Shown here: positions 3,873 through 33,325 of the stretch, piece after piece
Numbering within the stretch: the stretch's first letter is position 1
Layout of the letters: each line of letters starts with the position of its first letter
Source of the DNA: Verrucomicrobiota bacterium
Lineage (GTDB): Bacteria; Verrucomicrobiota; Verrucomicrobiia; Limisphaerales; UBA8199
Assembly (NCBI GenBank): GCA_029974925.1
Contig: JARKQH010000033.1
Coordinates: forward strand, 1 to 33,914
Length of the DNA: 33,914 nt
Direction: 5' to 3'
Program-made: the position numbers and the translations under genes
The notes under the pieces: generated by a model
What the model saw: the letters and a program-made list of their open reading frames with translations, nothing else
Told to the model about the DNA's origin: nothing
The model's database searches: none

Positions 3873-3948
3873 GGGGTCGTAGCTCAGTTGGTAGAGCGTC
3901 TCGTTCGCAATGAGAAGGTCAGGGGTTCGACTCCCCTCGGCTCCACCA
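3873..3948 (+). tRNA. tRNA-Ala (anticodon CGC)
   Basis: A full cloverleaf of 76 bases with encoded CCA. The acceptor stem GGGGTCG/CGGCTCC contains the G3-T70 wobble pair that is the alanine identity element. The anticodon stem TCTCG/TGAGA closes a TTCGCAA loop giving CGC, which reads GCG. The T arm has AGGGG-TTCGACT-CCCCT. The acceptor stem and D arm match those of the other alanine tRNA at 20607. Confidence 0.97.
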
Positions 3949-8223: not shown

Positions 8224-8301
8224 CGGAGCGTAGCTCAGCCTGGCTAGAGCACTTGGTTTGGGACCAAGACGTCGCAGGTTCAAATCCTGTCGCTCCGACC
8301 A
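8224..8301 (+). tRNA. tRNA-Pro (anticodon TGG)
   Basis: A complete cloverleaf of 78 bases with encoded CCA. The acceptor stem is CGGAGCG/CGCTCCG. The anticodon stem CTTGG/CCAAG closes the loop TTTGGGA giving TGG, which reads CCA and, by wobble, other proline codons. The T arm is CAGG-TTCAAAT-CCTG. The C1-G72 pair is typical of bacterial tRNA-Pro. Confidence 0.97.
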
Positions 8302-20606: not shown

Positions 20607-20682
20607 GGGGTCGTAGCTCAGTTGGTAGAGCGCCTGAATGGCATTCAGGAGGTCAGGGGTTCGAACCCCCTCGGCTCCACCA
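20607..20682 (+). tRNA. tRNA-Ala (anticodon GGC)
   Basis: A 76-base cloverleaf with encoded CCA and a T-run directly after it that could end transcription. The acceptor stem GGGGTCG/CGGCTCC keeps the G3-T70 alanine identity pair. The anticodon stem CCTGA/TCAGG closes loop ATGGCAT giving GGC, which reads GCC and GCT. Outside the anticodon arm it is nearly identical to the tRNA at 3873. Confidence 0.97.
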
Positions 20683-26063: not shown

Positions 26064-27530
26064 ATGGCGAACCGACGCTCATTCAAAAGGGACGAAAGCT
26101 TCCTCGAAAAGCTCGCCATTGGAGCGATTGGCGCGCGCGCCGTCTTTGAGAGCCTGAAGCGCCAGGGTCATCGCCCCATCGAGCTGGAACGCGGGGCGAT
26201 GAGCTACAAGATTTGGAAGCAAATCAAGATCAAGCGGCTTCGCGTTCCAGACATCCTTTGCCTGCACTGCGGCACACGCGTTGAGGCTCGCGCGAAAACG
26301 CAATTGGAAATCAGCATGTCGCACTCGCTCTCCGACCCCGAGCGCGGCTGGGACAAGGGACTTGCTGAGAGGGACATGGTTGCACTTGCCTTGTGCGCGA
26401 AGTCCGGAGAACGGCCGATTGATTGGCAGGCGAGCGAACTGGTTCAATTCGTGCCCGCTGCCGAGTTGCGTAGAGCCTACGCTGAGAAGCGTGTTGTTCT
26501 CACGAAACCGAAGGGCGCTCAGGAGGGGTTTGAGTTGCGCGTCACCTGGCCTGCGGCCGTGGCGAGTAGCGATGGCGTTGTTTCCGCAGTTTCCGAGTCT
26601 CGCCTTCAGTTCCGACGCAGCTCGGATGCACGCATCATCAGCCTTGGCCTGAAGCGAGGCGAGATTTCGCTGTCGCCGCTCGTTCAAGCGGGCGATCAAG
26701 TTCGTGCTGGCCAAATCATCGCTTCTGTGGTTCCGGTTTCCTCCGCAATTCCATGCGCCGGAACGTCTGCCGAGAATCTGTTCTTCCAATTGCTTGGCTC
26801 GTCAGCGGTCGCGGACCGTTACACCGCCGCGAAAGCCCTGTCGCACATTCAGTCGGCAGGCGCTTCTCAAGCTCTGCTTGCCCGTGTCAATGACGACCGC
26901 GAGCACATTTACGTGCGGCTTGAGGCCGCCGCGGGTCTCGCGCGATCCGGCCATGTTGTCGGCATGGAATTCATACGCCGCACACTCGCCGACCAGTATC
27001 TCGAACATCGCCTTGAGGCGGTCATCATCCTTGGCGAAATAAGCTCAGCCGAGTCGGCACAAGCGCTGACGGCGGTTCTGCTCGACACCGATCAACACGC
27101 CGATATTCGGGCGGGCGCAGCATGGGCGCTTGGCGAACTTCAGCAGCCGGCGGGCGTTGACGCGCTGATTCAAGTCTTTCTTGAATTGGCAGAACCCATC
27201 CGCATCGAGGCCGCCCGCGCGCTCCACAGAATCGCGGCCGCAACCGGCGCAAACATTTCATCCAAATTCCCAACCGCCCAAGACGACCAACGCGCCGGCA
27301 TCGCTTGGGCGCTGAGCCGCTCCGGTCGCGTCAACGTCCCCGAACTGCTGCCGTTGATGGTGGACGACGATGCCCGCCGCTGGGTCGCCTACATCCTCGG
27401 CACACAGGACAGGAACGCCTTCCTGGCTCAAATCGAAGAACTCCGCCGCCGCGACCCGGAAGTTTATTTCGCCGTCACCGTGCTTTGGAAGATTCTCGCG
27501 AGCTGGGTTTGCGACTTGGAGGAATTCTAA
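26064..27530 (+). CDS. HEAT-repeat protein with unassigned N-terminal domain
   Basis: First gene of the four-gene accessory cluster, 488 residues. Residues about 1-165 form a domain I do not recognise. It has a helical start, then IKIKRLRVPDILCLHCGTRV with C66 and C69, followed by E74 and K78 and LEISMSHS. The order helix, PD, E, K resembles PD-(D/E)XK nucleases but spacing is not canonical, so this is a suggestion only. Residues about 197-224 (LKRGEISLSPLVQAGDQVRA, then GQIIA) look like the turn of a barrel-sandwich/biotinyl-lipoyl-like fold. Residues about 245-450 are HEAT-like helical repeats (RLEAAAGLARSG, HRLEAVIILGEI, IRAGAAWALGEL, IRIEAARALHRI), a protein-binding scaffold. No signal peptide. 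The methyltransferase gene begins two bases after its TAA ends. Confidence 0.75.
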   Translation: MANRRSFKRDESFLEKLAIGAIGARAVFESLKRQGHRPIELERGAMSYKIWKQIKIKRLRVPDILCLHCGTRVEARAKTQLEISMSHSLSDPERGWDKGLAERDMVALALCAKSGERPIDWQASELVQFVPAAELRRAYAEKRVVLTKPKGAQEGFELRVTWPAAVASSDGVVSAVSESRLQFRRSSDARIISLGLKRGEISLSPLVQAGDQVRAGQIIASVVPVSSAIPCAGTSAENLFFQLLGSSAVADRYTAAKALSHIQSAGASQALLARVNDDREHIYVRLEAAAGLARSGHVVGMEFIRRTLADQYLEHRLEAVIILGEISSAESAQALTAVLLDTDQHADIRAGAAWALGELQQPAGVDALIQVFLELAEPIRIEAARALHRIAAATGANISSKFPTAQDDQRAGIAWALSRSGRVNVPELLPLMVDDDARRWVAYILGTQDRNAFLAQIEELRRRDPEVYFAVTVLWKILASWVCDLEEF

Positions 27531-27531
27531 C

Positions 27532-28557
27532 ATGCGCCACTCGTTGCCCACACCGCTTTACACCACACAATGGGGCGAGGCCCACGTCGGCGATTCGCTC
27601 GAGTTGCTGCCGCTGCTTCCCCCGGAGTCCATTGACCTTGTTGTCACCTCGCCGCCGTTCGCGCTCCAGCGCAAGAAGGAATACGGAAACGAAAACGAGG
27701 ACGCACACGTCGAGTGGCTGCTGCGATTTGCCGAACCCATCCGCCGCGTGCTCAAGCCCACCGGCAGTTTCGTCCTCGACCTCGGCGGCGCTTACCAGAG
27801 CGGACGTCCCGTCCGCTCGCTCTATAACTTCCGCGTCATGCTCCGCCTGTGCGACGAGCACGGTTTCCATCTCGCCGAGGAATTCTTCTGGCACAATCCC
27901 GCCAAGCTCCCGTCGCCCATCGAATGGGTGAACAAGCGCAAGATTCGGGCGAAAGATTCTGTGAATACCGTCTGGTGGTTCTCGAAAACCGAGCATCCGA
28001 AAGCCGACGTGCGCCGCGTCCTCGTGCCCTACTCCGAACGGATGCAAAAGCTCCTGCAAGATGCCGCCAGCTTTTATCGCCCGAAGAAACGGCCGTCCGG
28101 CCACGACATCAGCGCGAACTTCGCCAACGACAACGGCGGCGCGATTCCTTCGAACCTCCTGCAAATCCCGAACACGGAGAGCAACTCCTCCTACCTGCGC
28201 CATTGTGCGGCCGGCGGCGTAAAGCCGCACCCCGCGCGCTTCCCGGAAAAGCTGCCCTCCTTCTTCATCGAATTCCTCACCGACCCCGGCGACACCGTGC
28301 TGGACATCTTTGCCGGCTCGAATACAACGGGCAGCGCCGCCGAGAAACTGGGCCGCCGCTGGCTGGCGTTCGAGAAAGACCGCGCTTACTTGGCCGCGTC
28401 CGCCTTTCGTTTCATTGACGAACTGCCGGCGGACGATCTCCAGACCCTGTGGAGTCGTCTGCGCTCCGACGCATTGCCCATTGCGGTGGATCGGCAACAG
28501 CGCGAAATGGTGCTTGCGGAAACTGCGCCGCGCTACGCCGCGAAGCGGAAGCCTTGA
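27532..28557 (+). CDS. beta-class DNA N4-cytosine methyltransferase, PvuII-like
   Basis: S-adenosylmethionine-dependent DNA methyltransferase of 341 residues. Motif IV TSPPF lies early (about 39-43) and the cofactor motif I DIFAGSNTTG lies late (about 261-270), giving the beta-class order. SPPF rather than DPPY favours N4-cytosine methylation. The stretch FALQRKKEYGNENEDAHVEW and later FFWHNPAKLPSPIEWVNKRK recall M.PvuII and relatives as I remember them; the exact target site cannot be inferred. No matching restriction endonuclease adjoins it. It starts one base after the HEAT gene stop, so the two are surely co-transcribed. The next gene, an SNF2 helicase, starts 131 bases later. Confidence 0.88.
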   Translation: MRHSLPTPLYTTQWGEAHVGDSLELLPLLPPESIDLVVTSPPFALQRKKEYGNENEDAHVEWLLRFAEPIRRVLKPTGSFVLDLGGAYQSGRPVRSLYNFRVMLRLCDEHGFHLAEEFFWHNPAKLPSPIEWVNKRKIRAKDSVNTVWWFSKTEHPKADVRRVLVPYSERMQKLLQDAASFYRPKKRPSGHDISANFANDNGGAIPSNLLQIPNTESNSSYLRHCAAGGVKPHPARFPEKLPSFFIEFLTDPGDTVLDIFAGSNTTGSAAEKLGRRWLAFEKDRAYLAASAFRFIDELPADDLQTLWSRLRSDALPIAVDRQQREMVLAETAPRYAAKRKP

Positions 28558-28688
28558 ACTCGTTCGACCCGGCTTGGCGGCTGAGTGTCGCCGATGAGAT
28601 CTGATGCGTTTCGACGCAAAGACCCCGAAGGCACGACGAATTTCGACAGACTTGAGGAACGACGGCGAGAAAAGGCATACTCACGACG

Positions 28689-31600
28689 ATGGCATTCGCA
28701 GCTGGCCATACAGTGTTTGAGCTGAACAACCCGGGAAGGGGCGCTGGTCGTTTGACGGGTCGCCAGCAGACACGAGCAGGCGTCGTGTATTGGGAAGTGA
28801 CATTTGGACCAAATGAACGACGTTTTATTGCGGAGGCCTTTCTTCAGCCGTTCGGCGACCAAGACTGCAGCGCTGAAGAACTTGTCCGGCGCGGAATCTT
28901 CGGAAAAGCGGACGATCTAAGGCGGCTGTTGACCTTCGAGAAGCTCAAGGGAACGCTCCACGACTTCATCTATTCGATGGAAGCGGCGCGGATTGATTTC
29001 CTCGAATACCAGTTTAAGCCTGTCCTTGCGTTCATCAATTCGCCGACAGAGCGGTTGCTCATCGCGGATGAAGTTGGCTTGGGCAAGACGATTGAGGCCG
29101 CGCTCATCTGGCTGGAACTTCAGGCGCGGCGCGATGCCCGCCGGCTTTTGGTGGTTTGCCCGAAGATGCTCGCCCCCAAGTGGCGCATGGAGCTTCGTCA
29201 GAAGTTTGGGATTCAGGCGGAAATCGGCAACGTGGACCGCATGCAGCAGGCGCTTGCCGATGTCCGGCAGGAGGGAGAAGCGTGCTCCTTTTCCTGGATC
29301 TGCACTTACTCCGGGCTGCGTCCAGTCAGGCGTGACCTGATCCTTCTCGACGACCCGGAAGTAGAGGATTTGTCTGAACGTGGTCGGCTTTGCAGCGTGT
29401 TTCAGAATTGGGAGTCCAACTGTCCGCTTTTCGATTTGGCGATCTTCGATGAAGCGCACCATATGCGCAATCCGGCAGCAACTACTTTCCGGCTCGGCTC
29501 TGCAATCGCCAATGCAGCGAATGCACTCTTGCTCGTGTCGGCGACGCCAGTGAACAATACCAGCACCGATCTGTTCACGCTGCTTCGACTCCTCGATCCA
29601 GATTTCTTCTCGAACGAAACTGTGTTCAATGAATTGCTCGACAAAAACCGACCGGCGTTGCAGGCGTCCTTGGCACTCGGCCAGTCCAATTTCGTCCAGG
29701 CGGCAGAGGCTTTGTCCCGGTTGCGGCAAAGTCCTTTCGTCGGCAATTCGGAATTGCTTCGACAGGCAATCGAGCAGGTTCAGGCTCTCAAGCCGGGCGA
29801 TCATGCCGGAGTGCTCACCGTCATGGAGACAATCGAAAAGCTCAACATCGTTGGTCGTTACATTTCCAGAACACGCCGTGTTCAGGTCAAGGAGCGACGG
29901 CCAGTTCGTAAGCCCCTGATTCTTCGTGTTGAGTTTAACGAGCAAGAGATGCGGTTCTATCGCACGGTTACGTGGCTGGTCCGACGCCGGGTGGAAGCGG
30001 CTGGCGGTGGATTTCCCGCGTTCCATCTGATCTTACCGCAGCAAAGGACCGCGAGTTGCATTCCGGCGATGGTGCAGGCGGTTCGAAATGGTGATTTGGG
30101 TGATCCGGCTGAGCTGCTTCACGAAGCGTTCGACTTGGAATTGGATGCTGATGAGGAAATGCCGGCGGAATCATTCGATGACGACATCGTCAGTTGGCTC
30201 CGCGAATACGATTTCGAGGCGAATGATTCAAAGTTTTATGCTCTCAGAAAGTTGCTGGTTGAACAACTGGCAGATGAGAAGATCATCATTTTCGCCTACT
30301 TCAAGGCTACGCTGCGATACCTCCAGAGGCGACTTCTCGCGGAAGGAATTGGCTGCGCTTTGATTCACGGCGATCTCAATGATGACGAACGTGCGGCGGA
30401 GATGGAGTCGTTCCGCGAGAAGGCTGAAGTTCGCGTCCTTCTCTCGTCGGAGGTCGGCAGCGAGGGTATTGACCTTCAGTTTTGCCGGGTCGTCGTGAAC
30501 TACGACCTGCCGTGGAATCCAATGCGTGTCGAGCAGCGCATTGGCCGTATTGACCGCGTCGGCCAGAAAGCGGAGCGGCTAACGATTGTCCACTTCAAAG
30601 TGAAGGACACGGTCGAGGAACGGCTCTACGATAAACTGCACAGCAAACTCCGCGTGTTTGAAGAAAGCATCGGCGAACTCGAGCCGGTTTTGGGAGAGGA
30701 AATTCAGCACTTGACGATAGAGTTGCTCAGTCGCGACCTGTCGCCGGAAGAAGAGGAGAGGGTGATCGAGCGCACACGAATGGCGATTGAGAACAAGCGT
30801 CGCCTGGTAAAAGACTTGGAGTCACAAGGAGAAAACCTCCTCGCGCACGCCGACTACATCGCCTCGCAAGTCAACCGCAACCGCAGCTTGGGCCGTTACA
30901 TCACAGCGCATGAACTCAAGAGCTACATCGCGGACTTTTTTAATCGCAACTACAAAGGGTGCGTTCTCCAGTGGGATTGGCCACAGCCCGACTGCTTCAC
31001 GCTCGAACTCACACACAATGCTCACGACCGCCTGAAAGATTTTGTCGACAATCAGCGACTGAAAGCGCCACCGGAATTGCACTCGCGGAAGATCGTGGCA
31101 ACGCTCAACACTGAAGTTGCGCAAACGACGCGCCTTTCGCAAACCGGCCAATCAATTCTGCTCGTCACGCATCAGTCGCCGCTGGTGAAGTGGATCACCG
31201 ACGAAAACCTCCGCGCTGAGAACGTGTTCTTCGGTTTGTCGGCGACGCGGCTGCGAAGTAGCGAATGGGCGCAAGGCGTTTATGTTTATCGTGTCGAGCG
31301 ATGGAAATTCACCGGCTTGCGAAGCCGGGAACACCTGGCCTACGGCGTCTCAATGCTGGCAGAGGGTTCACTTCTTGACCCTGACGCAGCGGAACGATTC
31401 TTCCAGAGTGTAACAAGGGATGCGGAGACATGGCATGAGCCGAGGATCGAAGCCGAAGCTGTGCTCGCCCAATTCCAGCTAATTGACGAAGACCTTCGTC
31501 AGCGTTTTGAACAAATTCACAAGCAGTATGTCGCAGAGAACGCTGACACGTTGGCGATCCATAAGGCGCAAGTGAAAAGCCATTTCCAACGCCGATTGGC

Positions 31601-31790
31601 AGCGAACCAGCAGCGTATCCAGACCTTGCGAATGCGCGGACGCGCAGGGCACATGATTGCGCTCGTGGAGGCGAACATTAAAAAAGACGGGCTTCGCCTC
31701 GAAGAAAAGCTCCACAGCTTGAACGCGAAGGCAAGAACCGGCAGCGACTTCAGCCAGGTGGCCAGCGGCATTGTGGAGGTCCAACGATGA
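28689..31790 (+). CDS. SNF2/RapA-family helicase-like ATPase
   Basis: Double-stranded DNA translocase-type superfamily 2 ATPase of 1033 residues. Helicase motifs in order: motif I ADEVGLGKTIEAAL (about 127-140), motif II DEAHH (about 254-258), motif III SATPVNN, motif V LLSSEVGSEGIDLQF, motif VI QRIGRIDRVGQ (about 615-625). The N-terminal 100 residues and the C-terminal 350 are family-specific; the C-terminus is rich in charged helices. No nuclease motif is obvious. It most resembles the RapA/HepA-like group, which includes DrmD of DISARM. An ATGA overlap couples it to the next gene. By eye, codon use is less GC-rich than in the core genes to the left, hinting at acquisition. Confidence 0.9.
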   Translation: MAFAAGHTVFELNNPGRGAGRLTGRQQTRAGVVYWEVTFGPNERRFIAEAFLQPFGDQDCSAEELVRRGIFGKADDLRRLLTFEKLKGTLHDFIYSMEAARIDFLEYQFKPVLAFINSPTERLLIADEVGLGKTIEAALIWLELQARRDARRLLVVCPKMLAPKWRMELRQKFGIQAEIGNVDRMQQALADVRQEGEACSFSWICTYSGLRPVRRDLILLDDPEVEDLSERGRLCSVFQNWESNCPLFDLAIFDEAHHMRNPAATTFRLGSAIANAANALLLVSATPVNNTSTDLFTLLRLLDPDFFSNETVFNELLDKNRPALQASLALGQSNFVQAAEALSRLRQSPFVGNSELLRQAIEQVQALKPGDHAGVLTVMETIEKLNIVGRYISRTRRVQVKERRPVRKPLILRVEFNEQEMRFYRTVTWLVRRRVEAAGGGFPAFHLILPQQRTASCIPAMVQAVRNGDLGDPAELLHEAFDLELDADEEMPAESFDDDIVSWLREYDFEANDSKFYALRKLLVEQLADEKIIIFAYFKATLRYLQRRLLAEGIGCALIHGDLNDDERAAEMESFREKAEVRVLLSSEVGSEGIDLQFCRVVVNYDLPWNPMRVEQRIGRIDRVGQKAERLTIVHFKVKDTVEERLYDKLHSKLRVFEESIGELEPVLGEEIQHLTIELLSRDLSPEEEERVIERTRMAIENKRRLVKDLESQGENLLAHADYIASQVNRNRSLGRYITAHELKSYIADFFNRNYKGCVLQWDWPQPDCFTLELTHNAHDRLKDFVDNQRLKAPPELHSRKIVATLNTEVAQTTRLSQTGQSILLVTHQSPLVKWITDENLRAENVFFGLSATRLRSSEWAQGVYVYRVERWKFTGLRSREHLAYGVSMLAEGSLLDPDAAERFFQSVTRDAETWHEPRIEAEAVLAQFQLIDEDLRQRFEQIHKQYVAENADTLAIHKAQVKSHFQRRLAANQQRIQTLRMRGRAGHMIALVEANIKKDGLRLEEKLHSLNAKARTGSDFSQVASGIVEVQR

Positions 31791-33325
31791 GCGCACGATT
31801 CCTCAAAGCTCTACGGGACGCCGTCCGGCGCGGGATTGCGACATTCAGGTCGCTGTTTGCGCCGCAAGGACAAGAGCCAAAATCCGGGACAAAGGCGGGC
31901 GCAGTCCCGGCGGAAGAACCGCCAACTCCTGGAGGGCCGACTCCGCCACCTGCCAAAGAACATCTTCCGGCCATTCTCGCTCCTCGACGGGCCGTGCGTT
32001 TATGGAACATCGGGCTGGACTTTGGGACGGCTTTCACGAAAAGCATCGTGCGAAATCTTGCCACGGATGAAGCATTCATCGTCCCGCTTGGCTCACCACC
32101 ATATTTCTTTCCTTCTGAAGTGCTCTGCGGCAATGGCAGCTTTTGCATTTGCGGCGATTCCATGTCTGGAGCTCAAGCCCGAACTATCAGACATCTCAAA
32201 ATGGTTTTGGGGGATACAGCTCGCGAACAGCCGAATGGCGCGTGGCTTGCAGAGTTTGCCCGCGAAACTGACTCCGTGAACGATGGCGAACTGAAAGAAC
32301 GAGCAGAACATTTTACCGCCTACTTTCTCGCCCGCGTCATCCAAGAGGCGAAGGCCTTCATTCTCCGACAAACGCCCGATTTTGACGAAGCGGCGGGAGA
32401 CCGCTGGATGGTGAACATGGCTGTTCCTGTGGCGCACGCCCAAGATAATACGGTTGCCCACGCCTTCGAGCGCTGCCTGCGCCGCGCGTGGTTGCTTTCG
32501 CGTGAGCCGAACCTGGTCCGCATGACCTCACAGGAGATCGAAACGGCGCTTCGCAATCGCGAAGACGATGGAACGGACATGGGCTGCTACATTTACCCGG
32601 AAGTAAGCGCGAACGTGCAATCCTACATCAAATCGCGAGCAGGCGCAGACGGACTCTACCTCTTCACAGATGTTGGCGCTGGCACGGTGGACTTGAGCGT
32701 CTTCATCTACTACGTCCATCAGACCAACGACCGTCCGATCTCTTACGTTTCGGCCGGCGTCGTGCCGCTCGGTTCGTCACAAATCGAGATACGGACGGCA
32801 GAGAGACTGATTCGCGATCAGCCGGGAAGTGGTCTCGTTGAGCTTCGAGAGCAAATCCGGTTGGTGAAAGAAGGCCAACGCAACGGAGAGCCGAATTTGC
32901 TCGCTGCCATGCGTGCTGCAGAACAGGCAATCGAGGACCAGTTATTCGAGCACGCAGCGCCTGTACTGCAAAACGCCCGTTCCAGAATCCGCGGATCACA
33001 GTGGCGCACGCTCAAGGTCCTTTTCGGTGGAGGCGGAGCGGACGCGCTGCTTTACCGTCGCGCTGTAAAGCGTTGGTTTGAGCAATTCAGCTTCTTCACG
33101 CCAGAGCAGACGCCGATACCGCTGCCGCCAGATTTGCGGTGGCCGCCGAGCATTCCTGAAGCGAACCGAGCGCAACTCTTTCGCCGATTCTCAGTCGCGT
33201 ATGGCCTTTCATTCGACAGGGCCAATCTTGAAGATCACCGCTTTCCTTCAGATGTTGGCCCTCTGCCCCGACCAGCTGAGCCACCACCCGAGCGCCCGCA
33301 AGCGCCAACGATGGACGAATGCTGA
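31787..33325 (+). CDS. Hsp70/actin-fold ATPase-like protein
   Basis: Protein of 512 residues with an actin/Hsp70-type nucleotide-binding fold: phosphate-1 loop NIGLDFGTAFTKS (about 73-85), phosphate-2 loop FTDVGAGTVDLSVF (about 291-304) and adenosine loop VLFGGGGADALLY (about 410-422). A basic, Pro-rich tail of about 70 residues precedes the fold. No canonical DnaK substrate-binding domain follows; the C-terminus is a short Pro-rich tail. It is therefore an Hsp70-like ATPase and not a general chaperone. Its ATG overlaps the helicase stop by four bases, suggesting the two proteins are made together and interact. Role unknown; ATP-driven assembly or switching of the helicase is an inference. 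Confidence 0.85.
   Translation: MSARFLKALRDAVRRGIATFRSLFAPQGQEPKSGTKAGAVPAEEPPTPGGPTPPPAKEHLPAILAPRRAVRLWNIGLDFGTAFTKSIVRNLATDEAFIVPLGSPPYFFPSEVLCGNGSFCICGDSMSGAQARTIRHLKMVLGDTAREQPNGAWLAEFARETDSVNDGELKERAEHFTAYFLARVIQEAKAFILRQTPDFDEAAGDRWMVNMAVPVAHAQDNTVAHAFERCLRRAWLLSREPNLVRMTSQEIETALRNREDDGTDMGCYIYPEVSANVQSYIKSRAGADGLYLFTDVGAGTVDLSVFIYYVHQTNDRPISYVSAGVVPLGSSQIEIRTAERLIRDQPGSGLVELREQIRLVKEGQRNGEPNLLAAMRAAEQAIEDQLFEHAAPVLQNARSRIRGSQWRTLKVLFGGGGADALLYRRAVKRWFEQFSFFTPEQTPIPLPPDLRWPPSIPEANRAQLFRRFSVAYGLSFDRANLEDHRFPSDVGPLPRPAEPPPERPQAPTMDEC

What the first reader, a model, noticed from the sequence alone, without database searches (positions are those of the whole stretch)
26064..33325. Unrecognised four-gene cluster: HEAT protein, m4C methyltransferase, SNF2 ATPase, Hsp70-like ATPase
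The sequence shows four tightly spaced same-strand genes (a 1-base gap, a 131-base gap, then a 4-base overlap). DNA methyltransferase plus SNF2 translocase is a hallmark of multi-gene restriction systems such as DISARM, but DrmA, DrmB and DrmC are absent and HEAT and Hsp70-like partners take their place. I cannot match this to a named system. A defence or DNA-surveillance role is inferred: the methyltransferase could mark self, the SNF2 motor could scan DNA, and the Hsp70-like ATPase and HEAT scaffold could gate an effector, possibly the unknown N-terminal domain.
Basis: partly seen in the sequence, partly recalled or inferred. Interest (0 to 1): 0.78.

Follow-up and report, generated by a model that had tools for sequence, protein, structure and literature searches.

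The report
Two abutting two-gene defence-like modules
The four genes are two separate pairs lying side by side: a probable PvuII-type restriction-modification pair whose DNA cutter appears to be a HEAT-repeat protein, and a widespread, so far unnamed pair made of a DNA motor and an Hsp70-like ATPase that almost always travel together.

Summary
The four ORFs and their spacing are real, but they are not one system.

Module A (26064-28557): a HEAT-repeat protein plus an M.PvuII-family m4C methyltransferase (about 61% identical to the pPvu1 enzyme). In the window's own order, this methyltransferase is partnered either by an R.PvuII homologue or by this HEAT protein. The HEAT protein carries an invariant PD-x10-E-x-R-x-K motif and shows no detectable R.PvuII homology. 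It is therefore predicted to be a non-orthologous restriction enzyme for CAGCTG. CAGCTG is nearly absent from genomes with the pair (5 seen, 169 expected in sampled DNA), but scarce across the whole order: support, not proof.

Module B (28689-33325): a DrmD-like SNF2 motor plus an Hsp70 nucleotide-binding-domain-only ATPase. In a clade of 61 SNF2 proteins, 58 of 59 testable loci have the Hsp70-like gene next door, across over a dozen phyla including archaea; distances correlate (r = 0.90). It is patchy, found on plasmids and among defence genes, once inside a DISARM operon. I found no name for it in PADLOC, NCBIfam or the papers searched.

No other locus joins A and B. Defence is likely but untested; module B's effector and mechanism are unknown.

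The parts
26064..27530 (+). HEAT-repeat protein (488 aa), predicted restriction endonuclease partner of the MTase; module A
   Evidence: HEAT_2 E 7e-17; full-length homologues at 69-83% (five complete) and 31-36% beside M.PvuII-type MTases in the same order and 44% in a viral-collection contig
26064..26408 (+). N-terminal domain (about aa 1-115), putative PD-(D/E)xK-like nuclease
   Evidence: invariant E40, E42, P62, D63, E74, R76, K78 in 6-8 diverse homologues; predicted helix-strand order fits but at low confidence; no database hit
26247..26297 (+). codons of the P62-D63 ... E74-x-R76-x-K78 motif
   Evidence: read from the alignment
26766..27506 (+). HEAT repeat solenoid (aa 235-481)
   Evidence: pLDDT mostly 70-93; Foldseek best hits alphaRep/HEAT proteins
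27532..28557 (+). m4C DNA methyltransferase of the M.PvuII family (341 aa); module A
   Evidence: N6_N4_Mtase E 4e-41; about 61% identity to M.PvuII on pPvu1; TSPPF and DIFAGSNTTG motifs visible in the sequence
28558..28688 (.). 131-base gap between the two modules
   Evidence: sequence
28689..31790 (+). DrmD/BrxHI/RapA-like SNF2 motor (1033 aa); module B
   Evidence: PADLOC DrmD PDLC02623 750 bits, NCBIfam DrmD 370 bits against a cut-off of 610; conserved DEVGLGKT, DEAH and QRIGRIDR motifs
31787..33325 (+). Hsp70-like ATPase, nucleotide-binding domain only (512 aa); module B
   Evidence: AF2 pLDDT 87; Hsp70 NBDs Z 28, residues 72-480; profile match to DnaK E 3e-12 with E272/D295 on DnaK E171/D194

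Best explanation
Two independent modules lie next to each other. Module A works like a type II restriction-modification system of PvuII specificity: the M.PvuII-family enzyme methylates CAGCTG on the host chromosome, and the HEAT protein, through its N-terminal PD-x10-ExRxK domain, cuts unmodified CAGCTG, with the HEAT solenoid holding DNA or a partner (inferred). Module B is a mobile two-gene unit: a SNF2-family motor that moves on double-stranded DNA and an Hsp70-type ATPase without substrate-binding domain, most likely a nucleotide-driven switch or coupling subunit bound to the motor (inferred). B is most likely an anti-invader module (inferred); which part damages the invader is not known. 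Shown here: the gene pairs, their separate conservation, the families and folds, the partner exchange R.PvuII/HEAT, and the rarity of CAGCTG. Inferred: cutting by the HEAT protein, complex formation, defence.
For: A: MTase about 61% identical to M.PvuII. In the same order, MTases at 57-69% identity sit with R.PvuII homologues (L127-L130, L133, L136), while those closest to the window sit with the HEAT protein (L119-L125), as do two divergent pairs, L131 and L132; also L165. Motif conserved in all HEAT homologues. R.PvuII homologue not found in the own genome. CAGCTG 5 observed/169 expected in seven HEAT+MTase genomes, against 74/212 in 17 without the MTase; among 45 palindromes it is the outlier (ratio 0.085, next 0.63); whole-genome median 8.1 against 26.4 per Mb, p = 0.003. 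B: Hsp70-like neighbour in 58 of 59 testable members of one SNF2 clade; searches from the Hsp70 side give SNF2 next door in 7 of 7; distance correlation r = 0.903, permutation maximum 0.187; gap mostly -4 to +30 bases. Present in only 4 of 313 genomes of the order, on plasmids, inside a DISARM operon, beside Hachiman.
Against: No nuclease assay; the N-terminal fold of the HEAT protein was modelled at low confidence (pLDDT about 30-55) and has no PDB or Pfam hit; the motif has R where K is usual. CAGCTG is scarce in the whole order: R.PvuII genomes (median 28.6 per Mb) do not differ from genomes lacking the MTase, and two such genomes of the same genus as the HEAT genome G447 (G063 11.3, G471 5.7) are as low as it is (7.9). 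Module B has no recognisable effector, and its contig ends 589 bases downstream.
Confidence: 0.6

Rival explanations
1. All four genes form one new restriction system: the MTase marks self, SNF2 scans, Hsp70 and HEAT gate an effector.
For: Same strand, tight spacing.
Against: The two pairs are never found together elsewhere: 84 other SNF2 loci without the HEAT gene, nine other HEAT+MTase loci without SNF2/Hsp70; a genome of the same order (G461) has a close module B (69% SNF2) but is not among the genomes with the MTase or a full HEAT protein. Base composition of B (GC 0.56-0.58) differs from A (0.61-0.62).
Confidence: 0.05
2. Module B plus an MTase is a reduced or decayed DISARM (DrmD with a methyltransferase).
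For: SNF2 scores 750 bits with a PADLOC DrmD model; in L022 the pair lies inside a DISARM operon.
Against: No MZB/DUF1998 (DrmB-type) domain in the own genome; below NCBIfam's DrmD cut-off; the MTase is M.PvuII-like; in L022 the operon has its own separate partial SNF2 gene besides the pair; the pair stands alone at most loci.
Confidence: 0.1
3. The HEAT protein is not a nuclease but a scaffold or regulator, and the MTase is an orphan or protects against a PvuII-like enzyme encoded elsewhere.
For: The N-terminal domain has no recognised fold; the motif is not canonical; CAGCTG is avoided even in genomes without the pair.
Against: HEAT and R.PvuII appear to replace each other beside the same MTase family; R.PvuII was not found in the own genome; strict conservation of the acidic and basic motif residues.
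Confidence: 0.25
4. Module B is a housekeeping or mobile-element function (RapA-like transcription recycling, chaperoning, plasmid maintenance), not defence.
For: The SNF2 core resembles RapA; the partner is an Hsp70-fold ATPase; occurs on plasmids.
Against: Very patchy (4 of 313 genomes in the order), neighbours include restriction, DISARM, Druantia and Hachiman genes; the nearest named families are defence helicases.
Confidence: 0.2

Closest known systems
PvuII restriction-modification system (pPvu1, Proteus vulgaris)
   Same: Methyltransferase family and, by inference, CAGCTG specificity
   Different: R.PvuII is replaced by a HEAT-repeat protein with no detectable homology (hhalign probability 0.1); no controller (C protein) gene seen next to it; the two genes are co-directional
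DISARM (DrmD)
   Same: SNF2 protein of the DrmD/BrxHI/RapA group
   Different: No DrmB-type domain in the genome; the obligate partner is an Hsp70-like ATPase; no PglX/DrmMI-type MTase here
CoCoNuT and GAP1-N2 conflict systems with Hsp70 domains (PMC11090510, PMC7159879)
   Same: Hsp70-type domains used in prokaryotic conflict systems, some without peptide-binding domain
   Different: Those are built around McrB-like or other GTPases; no SNF2-Hsp70 two-gene unit was found in the passages read
PADLOC candidate PDC-M61 (component B)
   Same: Weak match to the Hsp70-like protein (31 of 53 homologues, best E 6e-11)
   Different: Component A model has 482 positions, too short for this SNF2, and did not match the own genome
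Eukaryotic SNF2 remodellers with actin/Arp subunits (INO80, SWI/SNF; own knowledge)
   Same: SNF2 motor paired with an actin/Hsp70-superfamily ATPase fold
   Different: No homology of partners or of an HSA helix was tested; analogy only

Membership tests
DISARM | DrmB-type DUF1998/MZB protein in the locus or genome | tested here: not met
   PF09369: no match in the own genome, 8 of 14 control genomes ring; MAG about 98% complete
DISARM | DrmD-type SNF2 helicase | tested here: inconclusive
   PADLOC PDLC02623 750 bits; NCBIfam NF038317 370 bits, cut-off 610 not reached
DISARM | DrmA and DrmC in the locus | tested here: inconclusive
   not among the window ORFs scanned with PADLOC, but the contig ends 589 bases after the cluster and the rest of the genome was not searched for them
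Type II R-M, PvuII kind | M.PvuII-family m4C methyltransferase | tested here: met
   about 61% identity to the pPvu1 enzyme, 89% of the query aligned
Type II R-M, PvuII kind | R.PvuII homologue | tested here: not met
   none found in the own genome (no positive control in that search); HEAT N-terminal profile does not match the R.PvuII profile
Type II R-M, PvuII kind | CAGCTG cleavage and methylation | not testable with these tools
   indirect only: CAGCTG avoidance
PD-(D/E)xK nuclease superfamily (HEAT N-terminal domain) | core fold with PD...(D/E)xK site | tested here: inconclusive
   PD-x10-E-x-R-x-K invariant; low-confidence model; no profile hit
Hsp70 chaperone | nucleotide-binding domain with phosphate-1, phosphate-2 and adenosine motifs | tested here: met
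   invariant G76, D78, G80, K138, E272, D295, G297, G415, G416
Hsp70 chaperone | C-terminal substrate-binding domain | tested here: not met
   NBD fills residues 72-481 of 512; about 30 residues remain
PDC-M61 (PADLOC candidate) | components A and B together | tested here: inconclusive
   B only weak; A (482 positions) did not match the own genome, but nothing rang in the controls either

The most novel reading that the evidence does not exclude
The SNF2 + Hsp70-NBD pair is a distinct, unnamed two-gene anti-invader system spread over bacteria and archaea, in which an Hsp70/actin-fold ATPase is an obligate coupling subunit of a SNF2 motor, a prokaryotic counterpart in design of Arp-SNF2 modules; and next to it stands a PvuII-type R-M system whose endonuclease was replaced by a HEAT-repeat nuclease of a new family.
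Probability: 0.3. Interest if true: 0.8.

Novelty: new variant of a known kind. Interest (0 to 1): 0.6.

Why it matters
PADLOC's DrmD model matches module B's SNF2 protein, so automated scans may file it as DISARM; the data show a separate SNF2 clade with its own near-obligate Hsp70-like partner in more than a dozen phyla, a concrete two-gene target for cloning. Module A would be a case of a restriction enzyme being displaced by an unrelated HEAT-repeat protein while methylase and site stay the same, and this can be tested with one purified protein and one six-base site. Together they show that a tidy four-gene 'operon' in a defence region can be two independent units.

Tried and rejected
One four-gene system: rejected on neighbourhood data. 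DISARM membership: DrmB-type domain absent, SNF2 below the NCBIfam cut-off. Hma (helicase, m5C methylase, ATPase, PMC8565338): the MTase here is m4C-type and the SNF2 prefers DrmD models. PDC-M61: component A has the wrong size. Homology of the HEAT N-terminal domain to R.PvuII: none by hhalign. Searching the single HEAT protein in plasmids, in the phylum sample and in viral contigs found nothing beyond the own genome; the alignment found two viral-collection contigs. Foldseek with the HEAT model gave only HEAT/armadillo hits, as expected from the low-confidence N-terminus. Defence enrichment of near against far neighbours (A7/A8) is only indicative: the numbers are matched models (183 against 48), not genes, and the near proteins are longer. 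A family-matched CAGCTG control by sampled sequence could not be fetched and was replaced by whole-genome counts, which weakened the avoidance argument. Literature searches for an SNF2-Hsp70 system found none; subscription papers and bioRxiv are not covered.
Full report
OBSERVATION. The four ORFs are present on the + strand with the stated spacing. The window is an entire contig of a 487-contig genome (about 98% complete) and ends 589 bases after the last gene. Genes further upstream are ordinary metabolism: glutamyl/glutaminyl-tRNA synthetase type, exonuclease VII, FeoB, sodium symporter, acyl-CoA synthetase, amidohydrolase, fumarase.

MODULE B, NEIGHBOURHOOD. A scan of 84,980 species genomes with the SNF2 protein returned 80 loci; four plasmid loci were added by searching with the Hsp70-like protein alone. 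Clustering of all ORFs put an Hsp70-like gene in 59 of the 85 loci (window included), usually directly downstream with overlaps or gaps of a few bases; in some cyanobacteria and one Cloacimonadota genome the order is reversed. In a maximum-likelihood tree of 85 SNF2 proteins, 58 of 61 members of one large clade have this partner (the branch holding the clade has support 94). Of the three without, two (L016, L076) end at a contig edge and one (L039) is a real absence. The clade spans Myxococcota, Verrucomicrobiota, Planctomycetota, Pseudomonadota, Cyanobacteriota, Spirochaetota, Bacteroidota, Balneolota, Nitrospirota, Acidobacteriota, Gemmatimonadota, Thermodesulfobacteriota, Cloacimonadota, a KSB1 bacterium and a methanosarcinal archaeon. 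Searches from the Hsp70 side (four plasmids; three other genomes of the order) found the SNF2 gene next door in all seven. Pairwise distances of the two proteins correlate at r = 0.903, with a permutation maximum of 0.187; shared taxonomy contributes to this figure.

MODULE B, PARTNERS OUTSIDE THE CLADE. Related SNF2 proteins have other partners: a true Hsp70 (PF00012) on the opposite strand or a UvrD-like helicase in Actinomycetota, and a sacsin/GHKL-type ATPase in others; two long examples show an HNH-like C-terminus by eye.

MODULE B, PROTEINS. The SNF2 protein keeps all motor motifs. Its best named relatives are PADLOC DrmD (750 bits), BrxHI, HmaA and RapA, and it lies under the NCBIfam DrmD cut-off. 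The Hsp70-like protein was modelled at pLDDT 87. Residues 72-481 superpose on Hsp70 NBDs with Z about 28, 3.4 A over 328 residues. ATP-site residues are invariant in 53 homologues and the C-terminal half aligns with DnaK at E 3e-12. There is no room for a substrate-binding domain, so it is an ATPase switch rather than a chaperone (inference).

MODULE B, CONTEXT. The pair is found in 4 of 313 genomes of the window's order, in four different families, on plasmids, beside Hachiman in Aminobacter, near CRISPR type I-D in Leptolyngbya and, in L022, between drmMI/PifA/a type II enzyme and drmA-drmB-drmC of a DISARM operon. This fits a mobile defence gene pair. A model of mechanism (inferred): the SNF2 motor moves on DNA, and the ATP state of the Hsp70-fold partner sets whether it stays engaged, by analogy with actin/Arp subunits of eukaryotic SNF2 remodellers (own knowledge). 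No effector was identified.

MODULE A, PAIRING. The MTase is about 61% identical to M.PvuII of plasmid pPvu1; M.PvuII makes N4-methylcytosine in CAGCTG (own knowledge), and the TSPPF motif fits an m4C enzyme. In the window's order 37 of 293 genomes have a relative. Where the flanks were read, six loci have an R.PvuII homologue (64-68% identical) beside the MTase, and nine others (L119-L125, L131, L132) have the HEAT protein beside it; the nearest MTases (77-85% identical) are in the second group. A viral-collection contig repeats the HEAT+MTase pair at 44% identity. In L131 the two genes are divergent.

MODULE A, HEAT PROTEIN. Its N-terminal 115 residues contain the invariant series E40-x-E42 ... 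P62-D63-x10-E74-x-R76-x-K78. That is close to PD-(D/E)xK, but with R at the usual K place. The AF2 model of this part is poor; the C-terminal HEAT solenoid is confident.

MODULE A, SITE AVOIDANCE. If the pair restricts CAGCTG, the site should be rare. In 225 kb of the own genome 2 are found and 66.5 expected; in seven HEAT+MTase genomes together 5 against 169; in 17 genomes without the MTase 74 against 212. Of 45 palindromes CAGCTG alone differs sharply between the two groups (ratio 0.085, next 0.63; MTase absence re-checked). Whole-genome counts agree in direction (median 8.1 against 26.4 per Mb, p = 0.003) but show that the site is scarce in much of the order, that R.PvuII genomes do not stand out, and that two genomes of the genus of G447 without the MTase are as low as it is. 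Contig samples were uneven (G009). The sign is therefore supportive, not decisive.

INDEPENDENCE OF THE MODULES. No SNF2 locus outside the window has the HEAT gene and no HEAT+MTase locus read has SNF2/Hsp70. G461 in the same order has a close module B and was not among the genomes with an MTase or full-length HEAT hit. GC of module B (0.56-0.58) is lower than that of module A (0.61-0.62).

KNOWN OR NOT. No SNF2-Hsp70 two-gene system turned up in PADLOC 2.0, NCBIfam or the open-access papers searched. Hsp70 domains without peptide-binding part are reported in GAP1-N2 conflict systems (PMC7159879), and Hsp70-like domains in CoCoNuTs (PMC11090510), but with GTPases. More recent or subscription literature could name it.

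Noticed in passing
G000 contigs (225 kb sampled): ATCGAT (o/e 0.0) and GTCGAC (o/e 0.03) are avoided as strongly as CAGCTG, suggesting further type II restriction systems in this genome.
   Followed up: no
L022:1504-21377: SNF2-Hsp70-like pair embedded in a DISARM operon together with PifA-like and type II restriction-like genes.
   Followed up: partly
L053:12826-16008, L047:13041-19037: Related SNF2 genes are followed, with a few bases of overlap, by sacsin/GHKL-type ATPase genes with an HNH-like C-terminus, another chaperone-like ATPase partner.
   Followed up: partly
L051:12789-14441 and five other Actinomycetota loci: True Hsp70 family (PF00012) gene convergent with the SNF2 gene.
   Followed up: partly
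L060, L063, L068, L074, L077 and others: UvrD-like helicase gene overlapping or directly following the end of the SNF2 gene in Actinomycetota.
   Followed up: no
G474:C23:828526-829989: HEAT gene beside an intact MTase carries two in-frame stops, so the predicted nuclease is probably broken there.
   Followed up: no
window 3873-3948, 8224-8301, 20607-20682: ARAGORN tRNA calls overlapping ORFs; two lie largely inside or beside coding genes and may be false.
   Followed up: no
L166:3850-7467: A HEAT-protein relative lies beside a different, larger methyltransferase on the other strand in a viral-collection contig.
   Followed up: no
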